Positions 1-6,487 of a stretch of 6,487 nt of DNA are shown piece by piece. A program made the translations under genes and the position numbers. Source of the DNA: Herminiimonas sp. (GTDB lineage: Bacteria; Pseudomonadota; Gammaproteobacteria; Burkholderiales; Burkholderiaceae); the NCBI GenBank assembly GCA_014377155.1, contig JACMQD010000233.1:1-6487 (forward strand). Reading direction: 5' to 3'. The notes beneath the pieces were generated by a model. The model saw only the letters and a program-made list of their open reading frames with translations. It made no database searches and was not told where the DNA came from. The first letter of the stretch is position 1. Every line of letters starts with the position of its first letter.

Positions 1-183
1 GACGCGATCGATGATTTTCAGGACCAACTACGTGCCCCGTGTATTTACACCGTCGAAGCTAACGTAGGTCACATCTGCGACGGCCGGATAGTGCGCGGCC
101 TCAATGGTTACACCGAACCGGCAATTGCTGACGATCTGAACGCTCTAGAGTATTCACGTTTCGCGAGAATATGCTGTTGTTAG
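1..183 (+). CDS. Possible C-terminal fragment of a truncated gene (left-edge partial)
   Basis: The +1 frame is open from the left edge to a TAG at 181-183, giving 60 residues with no visible start. The stretch around residues 18-40 (TVEANVGHICDGRIVRGLNG) loosely resembles the closing beta strands of SnoaL/NTF2-like proteins, where a 'DGKIVR' turn is common. That likeness is a recollection of the family pattern, not a search result. The frame ends in an odd CCC run just before the stop. It could be the real end of a gene, a decayed remnant or chance. Nothing downstream is linked to it. Confidence 0.3.
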   Translation, partial: DAIDDFQDQLRAPCIYTVEANVGHICDGRIVRGLNGYTEPAIADDLNALEYSRFARICCC

Positions 184-1145
184 TAAGTGGCGATGTAATG
201 GGAACTAAACCGCATCGCGACCATGTACACAGCCTTAGGCGCGGAAAACGATGCAAATTGGACAGTAACCGGCGCAGTGCTCTCATACATGCCATCCTGC
301 GCCGTGCAACACTCTTTCATTTGATCTCATAGCGTACTATTTCGTTACGCATGCGCCCGAGATACAGGATGCCGGAATCGAGCAGGGCATCGTTACAAAA
401 ATGTCCGATCTGCGCAATTAACCACAAATTTTTCCGACTTCCGCCTTCTAGCGCCCCGTGTCATAAAAACCCCGGATCAGTGACCGTCAGCGTTCCGTCC
501 CAGGCGTATTTAGACTACACCGCAATGCCGTCCGCAAGGGTGCGTTGAACTGTCTTTTCTGAAAGGTGCGGGATGAGTTTCTGCGCCGACGGCGTCACGA
601 ACGCTAGAGGAAATTGGGAGTTATGTGCCGTCATAGAAACAGCTATCAATGAATTCGTCACAATACCGAATTGTAGAATTTTAATGCGGTGTCCCGGAAA
701 TGCGGTGGAATTCAACCTTCGATGACAAAATCAAATTCCGCTTGAGCCGGTTATAAATTTTCCGTGGAGATTTGTCCATCACGCTCTAAAAGTACAAGGC
801 TGTTTCAAGGGTTTGAAAACGACAGTACATTGCATTAGCGACAGGATGACGACGCAGAGCATATCCCCAACGAATATCAATCAGGTTCGAGAGGCTCGTT
901 ATTTTGTCGCCGGTCAATTGAACATGCCTCTGAAGTCCTAGGAATGCAAAACAACGTCGCTTTTCAAGGTGGAGGTTCAACTCGGAAAGAAAGTGGCGCC
1001 TAATGCTGGCATTGCCGGGCCATATTGTTGCATATTTTATATTAAAATCTCACGTCTGCTTACAATTGAAACACCTAGCCGGTTGTCGTGGTGCAGCTTA
1101 ACGGGTTAAGGTTGAATCTCGATACAGAACAGCCGGGAGAACCTC
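184..1145. other. Gene-poor intergenic region, about 960 bases
   Basis: The region is clearly AT-richer than the operon and contains only short frames of about 65 codons or fewer on both strands. None has a recognisable motif, domain or ribosome-binding site. A 7-base inverted repeat (GGCGCAG at 271-277, CTGCGCC at 297-303) encloses a 19-base loop without a T-run. A 9-base direct repeat AATGCGGTG occurs at 683-691 and 699-707. The last 130 bases before the next gene are AT-rich and probably hold its promoter. I see no tRNA, rRNA, CRISPR array or IS end. Confidence 0.5.
1025..1066 (+). promoter_or_regulatory. AT-rich likely promoter region of the Gly-zipper gene
   Basis: A run of A and T 80-120 bases ahead of the gene contains -10-like hexamers TAAAAT (1043-1048) and TACAAT (1061-1066). 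TTG-type hexamers lie near 1025-1033, but no -35/-10 pair has good spacing. The placement is therefore approximate. Confidence 0.3.
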
Positions 1146-2426: not shown

Positions 2427-2552
2427 ATGGCGTTTCTCCTGCCCGGCTTCATAGCGTTTCTTTCGAAACGTGCGCATCTACATGAAAACGCCTCCAAGCT
2501 TAGCGGTTGCCTTCAACACAGTCGAATAGTCACTATCGCAGGTAACAACTGA
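2427..2552 (+). CDS. Possible 41-residue leader peptide overlapping the bphO start
   Basis: An ATG at 2427 opens a 41-codon frame whose TGA (2550-2552) shares its A with the ATG of the heme oxygenase (TGATG). This arrangement is typical of translational coupling. AGGG at 2414-2417 lies nine bases before the ATG and could serve as a ribosome-binding site. The product would begin MAFLLPGFIAFLSKR, a short hydrophobic stretch followed by basic residues, and has no family I recognise. The overlap with bphO is the main argument for it. A frame this short with this stop could also arise by chance in an untranslated leader. Confidence 0.3.
   Translation: MAFLLPGFIAFLSKRAHLHENASKLSGCLQHSRIVTIAGNN
2430..2470 (+). 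repeat. Direct repeat GCGTTTCT with adjoining small hairpin
   Basis: GCGTTTCT occurs at 2430-2437 and again at 2454-2461, with starts 24 bases apart. The second copy is part of a perfect inverted repeat, CGTTTC (2455-2460) and GAAACG (2465-2470), with a TTTC loop. It lies in the operon leader about 80-120 bases before bphO. It could be a regulator site or an RNA hairpin, or have no role. Confidence 0.3.
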
Positions 2553-3154
2553 TGACAGCACCGGTCACAACAGCGAGTGGCATTCTCGACAGGCTCCGGA
2601 TCGAAACAAGGTCTGACCACGATGCCATTGAACGAGTGCTCGACATCATGAAGCCCGATCTGAGCATCGCTACTTATCGTAAACAGCTCGCATTGTTCTA
2701 TGGTTTCTATCAACCGCTGGAGTCGTCGCTTGCATCGCTCGCCGACTGGTCAGAGTTCGGGCTGGACTTCGATGTGCGGTGCAAATCCGTCCTGCTTGCA
2801 GACGATCTGGACTATGTCGGGTTTGACTCACCCTGTCCGGTCCCCACCTGTACGATCCTTCCGCCATTGAATAGCATCGCTGCGGGCTTCGGTTGCCTTT
2901 ATGTACTGGAAGGTGCGACCCTCGGCGGCCAGCTGATCAGCCGACATCTCGCGGAAACGCTGGGCCTCGATGGGCTTCGAGGAGCGCGTTTCTTTAATTG
3001 CTACGGTGATCGTACCGGCATGATGTGGAAGTCGTTCCGCTGCGCGCTGGCGGAATTCGCAACGACCCCGGAAGTTAGGAACGAGGTCGTTGCGTCCGCT
3101 GCGGCGACTTTCCGCACGCTACGCTGCTGGTGCCTGACAGGAAGGAACAAATGA
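2552..3154 (+). CDS. bphO: Biliverdin-producing heme oxygenase (bacteriophytochrome-associated)
   Basis: This cytoplasmic enzyme opens heme at a meso carbon to give biliverdin, CO and iron, and so supplies the chromophore for the phytochrome encoded next. The 200-residue product has the full length normal for bacterial BphO/HemO proteins. Residues 12-27 (LDRLRIETRSDHDAIE) carry the expected proximal heme ligand, His23. The glycine-rich distal helix is YVLEGATLGGQLISRHL at 117-133, with the Gly-Gly pair at 125-126. FFNCYGDRTGMMWKSF at 147-162 is the conserved C-terminal signature. A stop lies in frame just upstream (TAA at 2543), so ATG 2552 is the first usable start. AGGT at 2540-2543 is a modest ribosome-binding site, and translation may depend partly on the small frame that ends on this ATG. 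The stop TGA overlaps the bphP ATG as ATGA, so the two genes are translationally coupled. Its three extra cysteines near the middle (77, 95, 100) have no known role. Confidence 0.95.
   Translation: MTAPVTTASGILDRLRIETRSDHDAIERVLDIMKPDLSIATYRKQLALFYGFYQPLESSLASLADWSEFGLDFDVRCKSVLLADDLDYVGFDSPCPVPTCTILPPLNSIAAGFGCLYVLEGATLGGQLISRHLAETLGLDGLRGARFFNCYGDRTGMMWKSFRCALAEFATTPEVRNEVVASAAATFRTLRCWCLTGRNK
3139..3145 (+). promoter_or_regulatory. Strong ribosome-binding site that fixes the bphP start
   Basis: AGGAAGG sits five bases before ATG 3151, inside the last codons of bphO. The longer frame would start at GTG 3130, which has no Shine-Dalgarno sequence ahead of it. ATG 3151 is therefore the better start and creates the ATGA overlap with bphO. 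Confidence 0.8.
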
Positions 3155-5499
3155 GTACCATAGAACCCGCAACGCCTGCGCTGCCGTGGGAAGGACAGTC
3201 TTACAGTGTCAAGCGTTTCGGCATTTCGATCACCAACTGCGATACTGAACCGGTACAGACGCCCGGTTGCGTCCAAGGCCACGGGGTTCTGCTTGCACTG
3301 AGACCGGGCGACCTGACCATTCTTCAGGCCAGCGAAAATACTGCTGAACTGCTCGGCCATACGCCGGCCGATTTGCTTGACCAACCCGTGCGCCAGGTAC
3401 TTGGCACGAAGAACGCCGATTTGCTTGCGGCGTTCCTAAAGCGCGAGTCAGTCGAATGTAATCCACTGTATGTGCTGACCCATCCCGGCAACGGCGACGC
3501 CGCGCCGCTCGACGTTGCGGTTCATACGCTCGACGGCGTAGTACTGCTTGAATTCGAAGCCACTGCGCGCGATCATCCGCAGGACCCGGATTATTATGGA
3601 TTCATCAAGCACAGCGTCGCGCGCCTGCAGGGTACGCTGACACTACAGGAGTTAGGCGACGCAGCAACCGACGAGTTGCGTATGCTAACTGGACTCGATC
3701 GCGTGATGATCCACAAATTTCATGACGACGGCCATGGCGAAATCGTGGCCGAAAGTCGTCGCGCCGACCTTCCCACGTGGGTTGGCCAGCACTATCCGGC
3801 GCAGGACATACCCGAGCCCGCACGCGAAGTTTTCCGGCAGATATGGATCAGGCCGTTGCGGGAGGTCGGTGCGCCTCTGGCAGAGATGGTACCTTTGGCG
3901 CATCCCGAAACTGGCCGCCCGCTATCGATGACGTACTGCGTATTGCGCGGCCCATCGGTGATGTACAGCGAATACTTGCAGAACATGGGTGTCACGGCGT
4001 GCCTGACGCTGGCGATCCGGCGTGGCGACAAGCTGTGGGGATTAATCACATGCCATCACTACGCCGGTCCGGTGAACCTGCATTATGGGGTACGCGCCAC
4101 CTGCGAACTGCTTGCCCAGATCGTTTCGCTCCAACATGAATCGGCAGAGCAGCGGGAGCATCTTGCCTATCAACTGCATCTGGAAAATGTGCATCGCCAA
4201 CTCGTGACCGAGGCGTCCAGGGAAAGTGGCCTACTGGCCTTGGTCGAGGCAACGCCGAGCCTGCTTGACGGTATGGATGCAAGCGGCGCGGCGCTGTTCC
4301 ATAATGAGTGCTGGCGATGCGTTGGATTGACACCTTCGGAGACTGCGCTCGATGCGCTGGGTGCATGGCTGAAGGCACACCCGGATTTTAAATCGCCGAC
4401 CCATCCGATCGTGGCAACCGACTCGCTGATGCGTGACTATCCTGGGGGTGCGGCGCTAGCGGAGGTTGCCAGCGGCCTCCTCGCCTTTGCCTTGACGCGT
4501 GACTGCCGCAGCATGGTGCTGTGGTTCCGGCCAGAGGTCATCCGCTCCATCGAGTGGCGCGGTGACCCGCACTACGAGGTAAAGGTGTTGGGCATACATG
4601 GCCAACGCCTGACACCACGCCGCAGCTTCGATCTCTTCACCGAGTCGGTGCGCGGATGTTCGGCACCATGGAAATCGGTCGAGATCGATGCAGCACTGCG
4701 CTTCCGTATGGTGGTCATGGAGCTGATCGTCAGCCGGGCCGAGCAACTCGCCGAGCTCAATGCCGATCTCGCCCGCAGCAACGAAGAGCTGGATGCCTTT
4801 GCCTACGTCGCCAGCCATGATTTGAAGGAGCCCCTGCGCGGCATCTACAAATATGCCCATCAGCTGGCCGAGGATGCAGCAATGATCGCACCCGAGAATC
4901 GACACCGCCTCGATGGATTGATGCGGTTGACATCGCGCATGGACAGCCTGCTCGACTCGCTGTTGCATTTTTCGAGGGTGGGTCGCATTGCGTTGCAGCC
5001 TGAAGAAATCGATCTCAACGAGGTCCTGGCCGAGGCGCTTGAAATGGTCGACGCGCGCCGCCGCGAAAAGATCGTGGAAATCACTATTCCGCGCAAGCTG
5101 CCGATGGCGCACTGCGATCGTGTCCGCATGCGGGAAGTTTTCGTGAACTTATTGTCGAACGCTTTCAAATATAACGATCGGCCATTGACAGTTGTCGAGA
5201 TCGGGTTCGTCGCACCCGTCGACCTTGGCGATCGCGAGGGGTGGCCAGCCACCTCATCCGATCAGGTCATCTACTACGTGAAAGATAATGGCATCGGCAT
5301 CCACGCGCGCCACATGGATCAGGTGTTCAAGATGTTCAAGCGGCTGCACGGCCGGGATGAATTTGGTGGCGGTACGGGTGCGGGGTTGACGATCGTAAAG
5401 CGGTTGGTCGAGCGGCAGGGCGGCATCGTGTGGATCTCCTCTCGACCTGGTCTTGGCAGTACGTTTTATTTCTCATTACCGTCATCCGTGGGATATTGA
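3151..5499 (+). CDS. bphP: Bacteriophytochrome sensor histidine kinase (PAS-GAF-PHY-HisKA-HATPase)
   Basis: A soluble red/far-red photoreceptor kinase of 782 residues, counted from ATG 3151. Order: PAS about 22-130, with the biliverdin-binding Cys30 in ITNCDTEP; GAF about 150-320; PHY about 335-515, with tongue motifs WRGDP (470-474) and PRRSF (489-493); a coiled linker about 520-550; HisKA with phospho-acceptor His556 in ASHDLKEPLR; HATPase with N-box Asn670, DNGIGI from 712 and GGTGAGL at 740-746. All kinase motifs are intact. The GAF domain keeps Asp219 (Asp207 of Cph1 and DrBphP) in PAQDIP, and His302 (His290). It has three pocket changes: His188 for Tyr176, Gln218 for Ser206 and Tyr272 for His260. 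The region aligns without gaps, so these assignments are firm. The coupled heme oxygenase and Cys30 point to biliverdin binding, but the photocycle may be unusual. Its likely partners are the receivers encoded directly downstream. Confidence 0.96.
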   Translation: MSTIEPATPALPWEGQSYSVKRFGISITNCDTEPVQTPGCVQGHGVLLALRPGDLTILQASENTAELLGHTPADLLDQPVRQVLGTKNADLLAAFLKRESVECNPLYVLTHPGNGDAAPLDVAVHTLDGVVLLEFEATARDHPQDPDYYGFIKHSVARLQGTLTLQELGDAATDELRMLTGLDRVMIHKFHDDGHGEIVAESRRADLPTWVGQHYPAQDIPEPAREVFRQIWIRPLREVGAPLAEMVPLAHPETGRPLSMTYCVLRGPSVMYSEYLQNMGVTACLTLAIRRGDKLWGLITCHHYAGPVNLHYGVRATCELLAQIVSLQHESAEQREHLAYQLHLENVHRQLVTEASRESGLLALVEATPSLLDGMDASGAALFHNECWRCVGLTPSETALDALGAWLKAHPDFKSPTHPIVATDSLMRDYPGGAALAEVASGLLAFALTRDCRSMVLWFRPEVIRSIEWRGDPHYEVKVLGIHGQRLTPRRSFDLFTESVRGCSAPWKSVEIDAALRFRMVVMELIVSRAEQLAELNADLARSNEELDAFAYVASHDLKEPLRGIYKYAHQLAEDAAMIAPENRHRLDGLMRLTSRMDSLLDSLLHFSRVGRIALQPEEIDLNEVLAEALEMVDARRREKIVEITIPRKLPMAHCDRVRMREVFVNLLSNAFKYNDRPLTVVEIGFVAPVDLGDREGWPATSSDQVIYYVKDNGIGIHARHMDQVFKMFKRLHGRDEFGGGTGAGLTIVKRLVERQGGIVWISSRPGLGSTFYFSLPSSVGY

Positions 5500-5500
5500 G

Positions 5501-5944
5501 ATGCTTCCTCTGGCCGGTATCCCGATGTGCCTTCTGGTCGAGGATTCCAACGAAGATGCCGACACTTTCGACGAAGCCTTGCGTCAGTCCGGCATAAGTA
5601 CCGAGCTGCATCGCGTTTGCTCCGGTGATGCATGCATGGCGTTACTGTGCCAGCCCGGAGCGCGCCGTCCCGCGTTGATCGTGATGGATCTTAATACGCA
5701 AGGGCTGGATGGACGCGAGGCGTTGCGCATGATTAAAAGCGACGCTACGCTGATGTCCATCCCGGTCGTCATCCTCAGCACATCCGCCAATCCGCGGGAT
5801 GTGGATTTTTGTTATACCTCCGGCGCCAATGCTTACCATGTCAAGCCGATGCGCTATCCCGATCATGTGCGTGCCATGATCGATCTGCTCGATTACTGGC
5901 TTACGCGGGTTTCACTGCCAGGCAACGACAGACAAAAGCCATGA
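5501..5944 (+). CDS. Single-domain response regulator, Rcp1-like (phytochrome partner)
   Basis: A 147-residue stand-alone receiver with no DNA-binding or enzymatic output. Acidic pocket residues are Glu14 and Asp15 (LLVEDSNED), the phospho-acceptor is Asp63 (VMDLNTQGLDGRE), the switch Thr is Thr94 (ILSTSAN) and the conserved Lys is Lys115 (VKPM). The DLN-x-x-x-x-DGRE motif and the C-terminal LLDYWL helix match the Rcp1 family, whose founder is phosphorylated by the phytochrome Cph1. ATG 5501 is one base after the bphP stop, with GGGA at 5490-5493 ahead of it. Two alternatives are less likely: an upstream in-frame ATG at 5453 lies inside bphP, and ATG 5525 has no good ribosome-binding site. 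The stop overlaps the next gene as ATGA. By inference it receives phosphate from BphP His556 and works through protein contacts or as a phosphate shuttle. Confidence 0.92.
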   Translation: MLPLAGIPMCLLVEDSNEDADTFDEALRQSGISTELHRVCSGDACMALLCQPGARRPALIVMDLNTQGLDGREALRMIKSDATLMSIPVVILSTSANPRDVDFCYTSGANAYHVKPMRYPDHVRAMIDLLDYWLTRVSLPGNDRQKP

Positions 5945-6487
5945 ACCACAAATCCAAGCACATATTGATCGTCGACGATAACCCGGACGACCTGGCTGAC
6001 ATGCGGCGCATGCTGCTGCTCGGGTCCGAGGTTCAGTTCCGTTTCACGCAAGCCGGGCTTGGCATGACGCTTATCGACATGCTAGGGAATGGCGCGCACG
6101 CGATGCCTGACTGCTTGCTGCTCGATTATTATTTGCCGGACATGGACGCGCCAGAGGCGATCGCCGCATTGCAGGGTACGGACGGGATGAGCGTTTGCCC
6201 GATCGTGGTCCTGACCGGCGCGGAAGGTGCCCACTTGGGCAAGCTGGTACTACGTGCCGGCGCGCAGGATTTCATCGGCAAGGAATCGCTTACTCCGATC
6301 GGACTGGTACGAGCCGTCGAGAACGCCATCGAGCGCTGGACTATGGTTCGTGAACTCATGCAGCGCGAACGGATGTTGACCGCACGCGAACGGGAACTGG
6401 CTTCGCTGGCCGATAACACGCCAGATATCCTGAGCAGGTTCGATCACGAGTTTCGTCACGTCTTCGTCAACAAGGCCGTGCAAAGCA
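5941..6487 (+). CDS. Receiver-PAS signalling protein, 3' end beyond the window
   Basis: The frame is open from ATG 5941 to the right edge, giving 182 codons without a stop. Residues 6-122 form a receiver domain: Asp12 and Asp13 (ILIVDDNPDD), phospho-acceptor Asp62 (LLLDYYLPDMD), Thr92 (VVLTGAEG) and Lys114 (FIGKES). Residues about 123-157 form a charged, probably coiled-coil helix (RAVENAIERW to RERELASLA). From about 158 a PAS domain begins (DNTPDILSRFDHEFRHVFVN). REC-PAS openings like this usually continue into a histidine kinase or a GGDEF/EAL output; which one applies cannot be seen. There is no clear Shine-Dalgarno sequence, so translation probably depends on the ATGA overlap with the preceding gene. 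Its place as fourth gene suggests that it is a second target of BphP, or a relay that adds another signal through PAS. Confidence 0.85.
   Translation, partial: MNHKSKHILIVDDNPDDLADMRRMLLLGSEVQFRFTQAGLGMTLIDMLGNGAHAMPDCLLLDYYLPDMDAPEAIAALQGTDGMSVCPIVVLTGAEGAHLGKLVLRAGAQDFIGKESLTPIGLVRAVENAIERWTMVRELMQRERMLTARERELASLADNTPDILSRFDHEFRHVFVNKAVQS

What the first reader, a model, noticed from the sequence alone, without database searches (positions are those of the whole stretch)
3712..3714. Natural Tyr-to-His at the phytochrome Tyr176 position
Codon CAC gives His188 where Cph1 and DrBphP have Tyr176 (motif DRVM-I-H-KF against DRVM-L-Y-RF). The distance to the invariant Asp of PxxDIP is 31 residues in both, so the alignment has no gap. 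In Cph1, Tyr176His gives a strongly red-fluorescent, poorly photoconverting protein, and the same change in plant phyB gives light-independent signalling. A native protein with this residue could be constitutively signalling, fluorescent, or tuned to another cue.
Basis: partly seen in the sequence, partly recalled or inferred. Interest (0 to 1): 0.72.

Follow-up and report, generated by a model that had tools for sequence, protein, structure and literature searches.

The report
Natural phytochrome with paired gain-of-function residues
This bacterial red-light sensor naturally carries histidine at a site where laboratory tyrosine-to-histidine mutants are stuck in a light-like state, and relatives that gained the same histidine on separate occasions nearly always carry an arginine at a second site where a plant mutant is hypersensitive to light, so the change looks like an evolved, coupled re-tuning and not an accident.

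Summary
In detail: codon CAC at 3712-3714 gives His188 of an intact 782-aa bacteriophytochrome kinase, exactly at DrBphP/Cph1 Tyr176. It is rare: of 66 phytochromes sampled from genomes, 65 have Tyr, 1 Phe, 0 His; 38 of 210 collected relatives, found partly by searching for this segment, have His. In 35 of the 37 His188 proteins readable there, the first Gly of the tongue WGG motif is Arg (window Arg470); only 2 of 171 readable Tyr188 relatives have it. A single origin of His188 is rejected, and in five hand-chosen His-versus-Tyr sister contrasts Arg470 is the only other column to change in all five. These two sites equal plant phyB Tyr276 and Gly564, where Y276H (YHB) is constitutively active and G564E (phyB-401) is hypersensitive and slow to reset. 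The protein also has Tyr at the usually conserved His260, a subfamily trait. Most likely this is an evolved variant with a Pfr-biased tongue partly uncoupled from the chromophore; a compensated, still photochromic receptor is nearly as likely. Strong fluorescence is less likely, since published statements deny it for biliverdin phytochromes. AlphaFold could not discriminate. Function is untested.

The parts
3151..5499 (+). Bacteriophytochrome histidine kinase, 782 aa (PAS_2 30-137, GAF 165-325, PHY 346-529, HisKA 548-610, HATPase 656-778)
   Evidence: Pfam; translation; PDB relatives
3712..3714 (+). His188, at Cph1/DrBphP Tyr176 = Arabidopsis phyB Tyr276
   Evidence: 38 of 210 proteins have His; phyB equivalence as stated in PMC11924222
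4558..4560 (+). Arg470, first Gly position of the tongue WGG motif (W469-R470-G471) = phyB Gly564, the phyB-401 site
   Evidence: phyB numbering from full-length chain 7rzw_A; PMC3207837
3964..3966 (+). Tyr272 at the conserved His260 position (of 210 proteins: 187 Tyr, 15 His, 8 Cys)
3793..3795 (+). Tyr215, at Tyr203 (other half of the tyrosine dyad); Tyr in this protein, Phe in 27 of 38 His188 proteins
3238..3240 (+). Cys30, canonical biliverdin-attachment cysteine position (DrBphP Cys24)
   Evidence: Cys in 207 of 207 proteins with a letter there (3 gaps)
3268..3270 (+). Cys40, second N-terminal cysteine characteristic of the subfamily
   Evidence: 206 of 210 (3 gaps, 1 Ala); 1 of 62 general phytochromes
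3805..3807 (+). Asp219 of the DIP motif (DrBphP Asp207)
4615..4629 (+). Tongue PRRSF motif (PRxSF), residues 489-493
4816..4818 (+). His556, predicted phospho-acceptor histidine of HisKA
   Evidence: inside the HisKA match; invariant in the 82-row alignment
2552..3154 (+). Heme oxygenase gene (biliverdin supply); its stop codon overlaps the phytochrome start ATG
   Evidence: PF01126; ORF; ATGA at 3151
5501..5944 (+). Single-domain response regulator, likely partner (partnership inferred from position)
   Evidence: PF00072; start ATG seen
5941..6486 (+). Second receiver-domain protein, cut by the window end
   Evidence: PF00072, (scanned from 5938); start ATG

Best explanation
An intact, operon-encoded bacteriophytochrome of a rare subfamily (Tyr at the His260 position, extra Cys40) that has evolved a coupled pair of substitutions, His188 in the chromophore pocket and Arg470 in the tongue WGG motif. 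Shown: both residues, their rarity, their association, and more than one gain of His188. Inferred: the pair shifts the tongue toward its Pfr-like helical form and loosens the link between bilin isomerisation and the kinase, so output is largely constitutive or very slow to reset, as in plant YHB (constitutive) and phyB-401 (slow to reset). The coupling itself I hold at about 0.9; the number below is for the mechanism.
For: Association: Arg470 in 35 of 37 readable His188 proteins and 2 of 171 readable Tyr188 proteins; both Arg-with-Tyr cases (P0134, P0197) group with the His protein P0122. No Arg at 470 among 65 readable genome-sampled phytochromes. Separate gains: residue 188 changes at least 6-7 times; one clade for all 36 tested His rows is rejected, p-AU 9.6e-52. 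Specificity: of 782 columns, only 470R, besides 188 itself, differs in 5 of 5 His-versus-sister contrasts (contrasts hand-chosen after the trees). Mechanism by analogy: Cph1 Y176H and phyB Y276H have a helical Pfr-like tongue with a Pr chromophore (PMC11924222); phyB-401, G to E at 564 in WGG, is thought to keep a Pfr-like Pr form (PMC3207837); Gly564 is the first Gly. In the window protein the Cys, Asp, Arg, PRxSF and kinase motif residues are intact and a heme oxygenase gene precedes.
Against: No functional data. Arg is not Glu, and G564E was studied in a plant protein; phyB-401 seedlings look normal in darkness, so that allele is not constitutive (PMC3207837). Reports on Y176H in bacteriophytochromes conflict. 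AlphaFold gives a helical tongue for the window protein but also for the Tyr188/Gly470 control P0005, so it says nothing about these residues. The independent-pairs sign test does not reach 0.05: 5 supported pairs, on average 4.1-4.2 the same way, 0 opposite. Two His188 proteins have Gly470 (P0203, P0206), and L002 (Solirubrobacterales) has His188 with His260 and WGG. Other co-changes exist: residue 198 Val to Ile in 4 of 5 contrasts. His188 proteins as a set also vary at sites fixed or nearly fixed in the others: the DIP Asp is Glu in 3 of 38 (0 of 172) and the His290 site is Gln in 6 of 38 (1 of 172).
Confidence: 0.42

Rival explanations
1. Compensated photoreceptor: Tyr272, Arg470 and neighbouring changes restore normal or shifted photochromism around His188, so the protein is an ordinary light-regulated kinase with altered kinetics, pKa or colour.
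For: Among the 210 proteins His188 is seen only with Tyr272 (37) or Cys272 (1), never with His272 (0 of the 15 His272 proteins). In the P0122 group two relatives have Arg470 with Tyr188, as a permissive first step would leave. The window protein keeps the other pocket and kinase motif residues tested. PMC8980088 states that the Tyr-to-His change in biliverdin phytochromes does not block Pfr formation.
Against: Tyr272 is already the usual state of the subfamily (150 of 172 Tyr188 proteins), so it cannot be specific to His188. No contact between Arg470 and His188 was shown here. PMC11035067 states that DrBphP Y176H is not photochromic.
Confidence: 0.36
2. Photochemically inert, strongly red-fluorescent phytochrome, as for Cph1 Y176H.
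For: Cph1 Y176H: fluorescence yield 0.144 against 0.024 in wild type (PMC8980088).
Against: Two papers state the gain does not occur in bacteriophytochromes; the upstream heme oxygenase points to biliverdin as the bilin.
Confidence: 0.07
3. Relaxed constraint or decay of a dispensable photoreceptor.
For: L001 (Pararhodospirillum oryzae), one of the two His176 proteins found in species genomes, lacks the DIP Asp, the His260 and the PRxSF Arg. His188 proteins vary more at the DIP Asp and His290 sites than Tyr188 proteins (3 of 38 and 6 of 38 against 0 and 1 of 172).
Against: The window protein keeps an open frame, the motif residues tested, a heme oxygenase and a regulator gene; the same pair of changes recurs in separate lineages.
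Confidence: 0.06
4. The shared pair reflects gene conversion or domain transfer of one ancestral photosensory module, not repeated substitution.
For: Related proteins may occur as paralogs on one contig (inferred from equal contig lengths), which would allow conversion.
Against: The tree and AU tests used the photosensory region itself, minus the three columns, and still reject one His clade; short conversion tracts were not tested.
Confidence: 0.09

Closest known systems
Cph1 Y176H (PDB 8RVX; PMC11924222) and Arabidopsis phyB Y276H (YHB)
   Same: Histidine at the identical GAF position; tongue coupling is the function affected in the mutants
   Different: Laboratory mutants in phytobilin-binding phytochromes that otherwise keep His260 and WGG; here the His is native, with Tyr272 and Arg470, and biliverdin is the likely bilin
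Arabidopsis phyB-401 (G to E at 564; PMC3207837)
   Same: Charged, bulky residue at the first Gly of WGG (Gly564 = window residue 470)
   Different: Glu, not Arg; single mutation; normal spectra and a normal phenotype in darkness
IsPadC G449E, with DrBphP G453E and XccBphP G454E as cited there (PMC11035067)
   Same: Tongue WGG substitutions in bacteriophytochromes that greatly stabilise Pfr; IsPadC G449E also has raised dark activity
   Different: IsPadC Gly449 is the second Gly (W-A448-G449 by the paper's text; for the other two recalled numbering), a site that is Gly in all 82 aligned relatives
Canonical bacteriophytochrome kinases such as DrBphP and 8UPH
   Same: PAS-GAF-PHY-kinase layout, DIP Asp, PRxSF
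   Different: Tyr at 260, His at 176, Arg in WGG, extra Cys40

Membership tests
Bacteriophytochrome histidine kinase | PAS-GAF-PHY photosensory module plus HisKA/HATPase | tested here: met
   Pfam; structural matches spanning 13-530
Bacteriophytochrome histidine kinase | Biliverdin-attachment Cys N-terminal to PAS | tested here: met
   Cys30; 207 of 207 proteins with a letter, (attachment itself untested)
Bacteriophytochrome histidine kinase | DIP Asp and tongue PRxSF | tested here: met
   Asp219, PRRSF 489-493
Bacteriophytochrome histidine kinase | Linked heme oxygenase as biliverdin source | tested here: met
   PF01126 gene at 2552-3154
Bacteriophytochrome histidine kinase | Red/far-red photoconversion and light-regulated kinase | not testable with these tools
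   needs purified protein
Canonical (prototypical) pocket | Tyr176, His260, WGG or WAG tongue motif | tested here: not met
   His188, Tyr272, W-R470-G
YHB-like constitutive phytochrome | His at the Tyr176/Tyr276 site | tested here: met
YHB-like constitutive phytochrome | Light-independent output with a helical tongue | not testable with these tools
   AlphaFold gave a helical tongue for both the window protein and the Tyr188 control, so it is no test

The most novel reading that the evidence does not exclude
Bacteria have repeatedly evolved the two plant gain-of-function sites together (YHB site plus phyB-401 site), making native phytochromes whose output is held in the lit form regardless of light. 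In some relatives such a protein appears to lie on the same contig as a Tyr-type paralog, and could act as its light-blind partner or reference subunit.
Probability: 0.2. Interest if true: 0.85.

Novelty: new variant of a known kind. Interest (0 to 1): 0.62.

Why it matters
How the bilin pocket drives refolding of the tongue is an open question that the papers seen here study with engineered mutants. Nature seems to offer replicated experiments: separate lineages in which the Tyr176 site and the tongue WGG site change together, with close Tyr/Gly relatives and Arg-only relatives as ready controls. It makes the coupling between these two sites directly testable, and would show whether light-independent phytochromes are used in nature.

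Tried and rejected
AlphaFold as evidence for a Pfr-like tongue: rejected. The window model has a tongue helix at 490-500 and fits Pfr structures with lower rmsd than Pr (4o01 2.9 A over 479 residues, 4o0p 5.3 A over 470), but the Tyr188/Gly470 control P0005 has the same helix at 492-502 and the same preference (4o01 3.8 A over 483, 4o0p 6.3 A over 474). By Z the Pr and Pfr entries are tied or mixed, and tongue confidence is low in both models.

A simple Tyr/His swap (176 and 260 exchanged): rejected as the full account, because Tyr272 is the usual state of the subfamily with Tyr188 too (150 of 172) and L002 has His at both sites.

The 'tyrosine dyad' as co-changing: Phe at 215 is in 27 of 38 His188 proteins and 1 of 172 Tyr188 proteins, but the window protein keeps Tyr215 and Phe is common in genome-sampled phytochromes (44 of 66), so I do not build on it.

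Dead ends: whole genome of the window not held; a scan of viral contigs with P0131 gave no relative; on plasmids P0001 found 70 records, all under 60% identity; the AU test for the largest His group alone did not finish. In one search loci L010 and L018 were evidently read from a wrong frame; redid all 71 loci with a profile.

Limits of the counts: the five contrasts were picked by hand after seeing the trees, with thresholds of at least 70% in the His group and at most 15% in the sister group; the sister of the P0199-P0207 group is unsure; for the P0122 contrast the Arg/Tyr relatives P0134 and P0197 were left out; for the largest group the nested Tyr188/Cys272 proteins were not used. Trees are quick ones (FastTree; IQ-TREE LG+G4 short search). 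The pairwise AU tests (A+B, A+D, C+D) name groups seen on the first tree; the all-His test does not. Four fragments were left out (P0125, P0183, P0200, P0202); 102 of 210 proteins were used. One search listed 120 of 1353 hits. In one search five hit rows without a letter at 188, and loci L001-L004, were dropped; the 67 other loci are the best ones returned per call, and searches drew on the orders of L002 and L001.

Print search (open-access library only): asked for natural variants at Tyr176, for H260Y, for Y276H with G564E; some searches were on neighbouring terms. No natural His at this site was seen. I saw listings, and passages only of PMC11924222, PMC3207837, PMC5928327, PMC8980088, PMC12420706 and PMC11035067; no paper was read whole.

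Full report
What is there. The window encodes, on the + strand, a heme oxygenase (2552-3154), a bacteriophytochrome kinase (3151-5499, 782 aa), a single-domain response regulator (5501-5944) and the start of a second receiver-domain protein (from 5941). The heme oxygenase stop overlaps the phytochrome start. The phytochrome has PAS_2, GAF, PHY, HisKA and HATPase domains, the N-terminal Cys30, the DIP Asp219, the tongue PRRSF motif and the kinase His556. Its best-scoring solved relatives are bacteriophytochromes.

The observation. Codon CAC at 3712-3714 is His188. Aligned with DrBphP chains it falls on residue 176, and Tyr272 falls on residue 260 (the chain offset of 14 rests on the recalled number Cys24). 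So the protein departs from the canonical pocket at two sites, not one. Tyr272 is a subfamily trait: of 210 proteins 187 have Tyr there, 15 His and 8 Cys, whereas 62 of 66 phytochromes sampled from genomes have His and the other 4 are close relatives of this protein (50-55% identity).

How common is His188? In the 120 best whole-protein relatives, 3. Two more searches aimed at the segment around it raised the set to 210 proteins with 38 His; those searches favour His, so this is no frequency. The less biased figure is 0 His, 65 Tyr and 1 Phe among 66 phytochromes found by whole protein or PHY domain, although each call returned only its best loci. A scan of the genome collection for the encoded motif found two places: L001, Pararhodospirillum oryzae, degenerate at several pocket sites, and L002, a Solirubrobacterales MAG that keeps His260 and WGG. 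The scan is incomplete: the motif fits 27 of the 38 His proteins and 13 of 62 general phytochromes. None of the 38 His188 proteins carries an organism name.

The second site. Comparing His188 with Tyr188 proteins column by column in 148 proteins, one other column stands out: residue 470, the first Gly of the tongue WGG motif. In all 210, His188 proteins have Arg470 in 35 of 37 readable cases (Gly in P0203 and P0206), Tyr188 proteins in 2 of 171 readable cases (P0134 and P0197, both grouping with the His protein P0122). No Arg at 470 occurs among the genome-sampled phytochromes (Ala 34, Gly 24, Ser 5, Leu 2, one gap). Residue 470 lies outside the segments used, so the association is not made by those searches.

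Separate origins. On trees built without columns 188, 272 and 470, residue 188 changes at least 7 times (206 rows, FastTree) or 6 times (102 rows, photosensory region, IQ-TREE quick). Holding all 36 tested His rows in one clade is rejected (p-AU 9.6e-52). In five contrasts of a His group with its Tyr sisters, 470R is gained in all five; of 782 columns none other than 188 itself does this, the next being 198 Ile in four (contrasts chosen by hand after the trees). The formal sign test on independent pairs is not significant: five pairs on supported branches, on average 4.1-4.2 the same way, none opposite. In the P0122 group relatives with Arg470 and Tyr188 exist, which suggests that Arg can come first, though a reversal to Tyr is not excluded.

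Why the two sites matter. Passages of PMC11924222 report that Cph1 Y176H and phyB Y276H combine a Pr chromophore with a Pfr-like helical tongue, that the Trp of WGG takes part in the tryptophan swap, and that Tyr176 couples isomerisation to tongue refolding. Passages of PMC3207837 report that phyB-401, G to E at 564 in WGG, is hypersensitive, reverts slowly in darkness and probably keeps a Pfr-like form after far-red light; its seedlings look normal in darkness, so it is not constitutive. In the full-length phyB chain 7rzw the motif is W563-G564-G565, so Gly564 is exactly the position of Arg470. PMC11035067 (passages) describes WGG substitutions that stabilise Pfr in bacteriophytochromes, in IsPadC at the second Gly. 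The window protein thus natively changes both sites at which single mutations make plant phyB constitutively active or hypersensitive.

Mechanism. Shown: the two residues, their joint and repeated occurrence, and intact surroundings in the window protein. Inferred: a charged His188 and a bulky Arg470 both disfavour the Pr sheet form of the tongue, so the kinase is held near its Pfr-like state with weak control by the bilin. The main rival is that the pair, in a Tyr272 background, compensates and leaves a working, re-tuned photoreceptor. Statements on the single change in bacteriophytochromes conflict: not blocking Pfr and not fluorescent (PMC8980088) against not photochromic (PMC11035067). Strong fluorescence is therefore a weak expectation. 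Against a tightly kept mechanism, His188 proteins as a set also vary at the DIP Asp (Glu in 3 of 38, 0 of 172 others) and the His290 site (Gln in 6 of 38, 1 of 172 others).

Structure prediction did not help. AlphaFold built a helical tongue for the window protein and for a Tyr188/Gly470 relative; both fit Pfr structures with lower rmsd than Pr.

Possible paralog pairs. Reading the tables by eye, five pairs have identical longest-contig lengths and a shared source: P0151 (His188/Arg470) with P0184 (Tyr188/Gly470), 7,997 bases; P0143 (His188/Arg470) with P0188 (Tyr188/His272/Gly470), 5,790; and, with Tyr188 in both, P0154 with P0175 (Cys272), 26,860; P0156 with P0165 (Cys272), 21,498; P0162 with P0183 (Cys272, partial), 4,064 (residues). 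The window shows no second phytochrome.

Verdict. I class it as a new variant of a known kind.

Noticed in passing
window 3268-3270: A second N-terminal cysteine, Cys40, ten residues after the bilin-attachment Cys30, in 206 of 210 proteins but 1 of 62 general phytochromes; role unknown.
   Followed up: partly
P0165, P0170, P0175, P0183, P0187, P0193, P0195, P0200: Cys at the His260 position in 8 of 210 proteins, some placed among His188 groups in the trees; seven of the eight have Tyr188.
   Followed up: partly
L001 2632-2664 and its reading frame: Pararhodospirillum oryzae phytochrome with His176 that lacks the DIP Asp, the His260 and the PRxSF Arg: probably no longer a photoswitch.
   Followed up: no
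L002 4518-4550 and its reading frame: Solirubrobacterales MAG phytochrome, apparently with GGDEF/EAL output (named by eye), carrying His176 together with His260 and WGG: a natural single-site YHB equivalent.
   Followed up: no
P0151/P0184, P0143/P0188, P0154/P0175, P0156/P0165, P0162/P0183: Equal contig lengths and shared sources suggest paralogous phytochromes on one contig, a divergent one beside a Tyr-type one.
   Followed up: no
His188 proteins at window residues 219 and 303: The DIP Asp is Glu in 3 of 38 and the His290 site is Gln in 6 of 38 His188 proteins, against 0 and 1 of 172 Tyr188 proteins.
   Followed up: no
window 1-1087: Stretch without an ORF of 80 aa or more and of lower G+C (49% over 1-1100 against 59% in the phytochrome gene), upstream of a glycine-zipper protein gene (1146-1826).
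   Followed up: no
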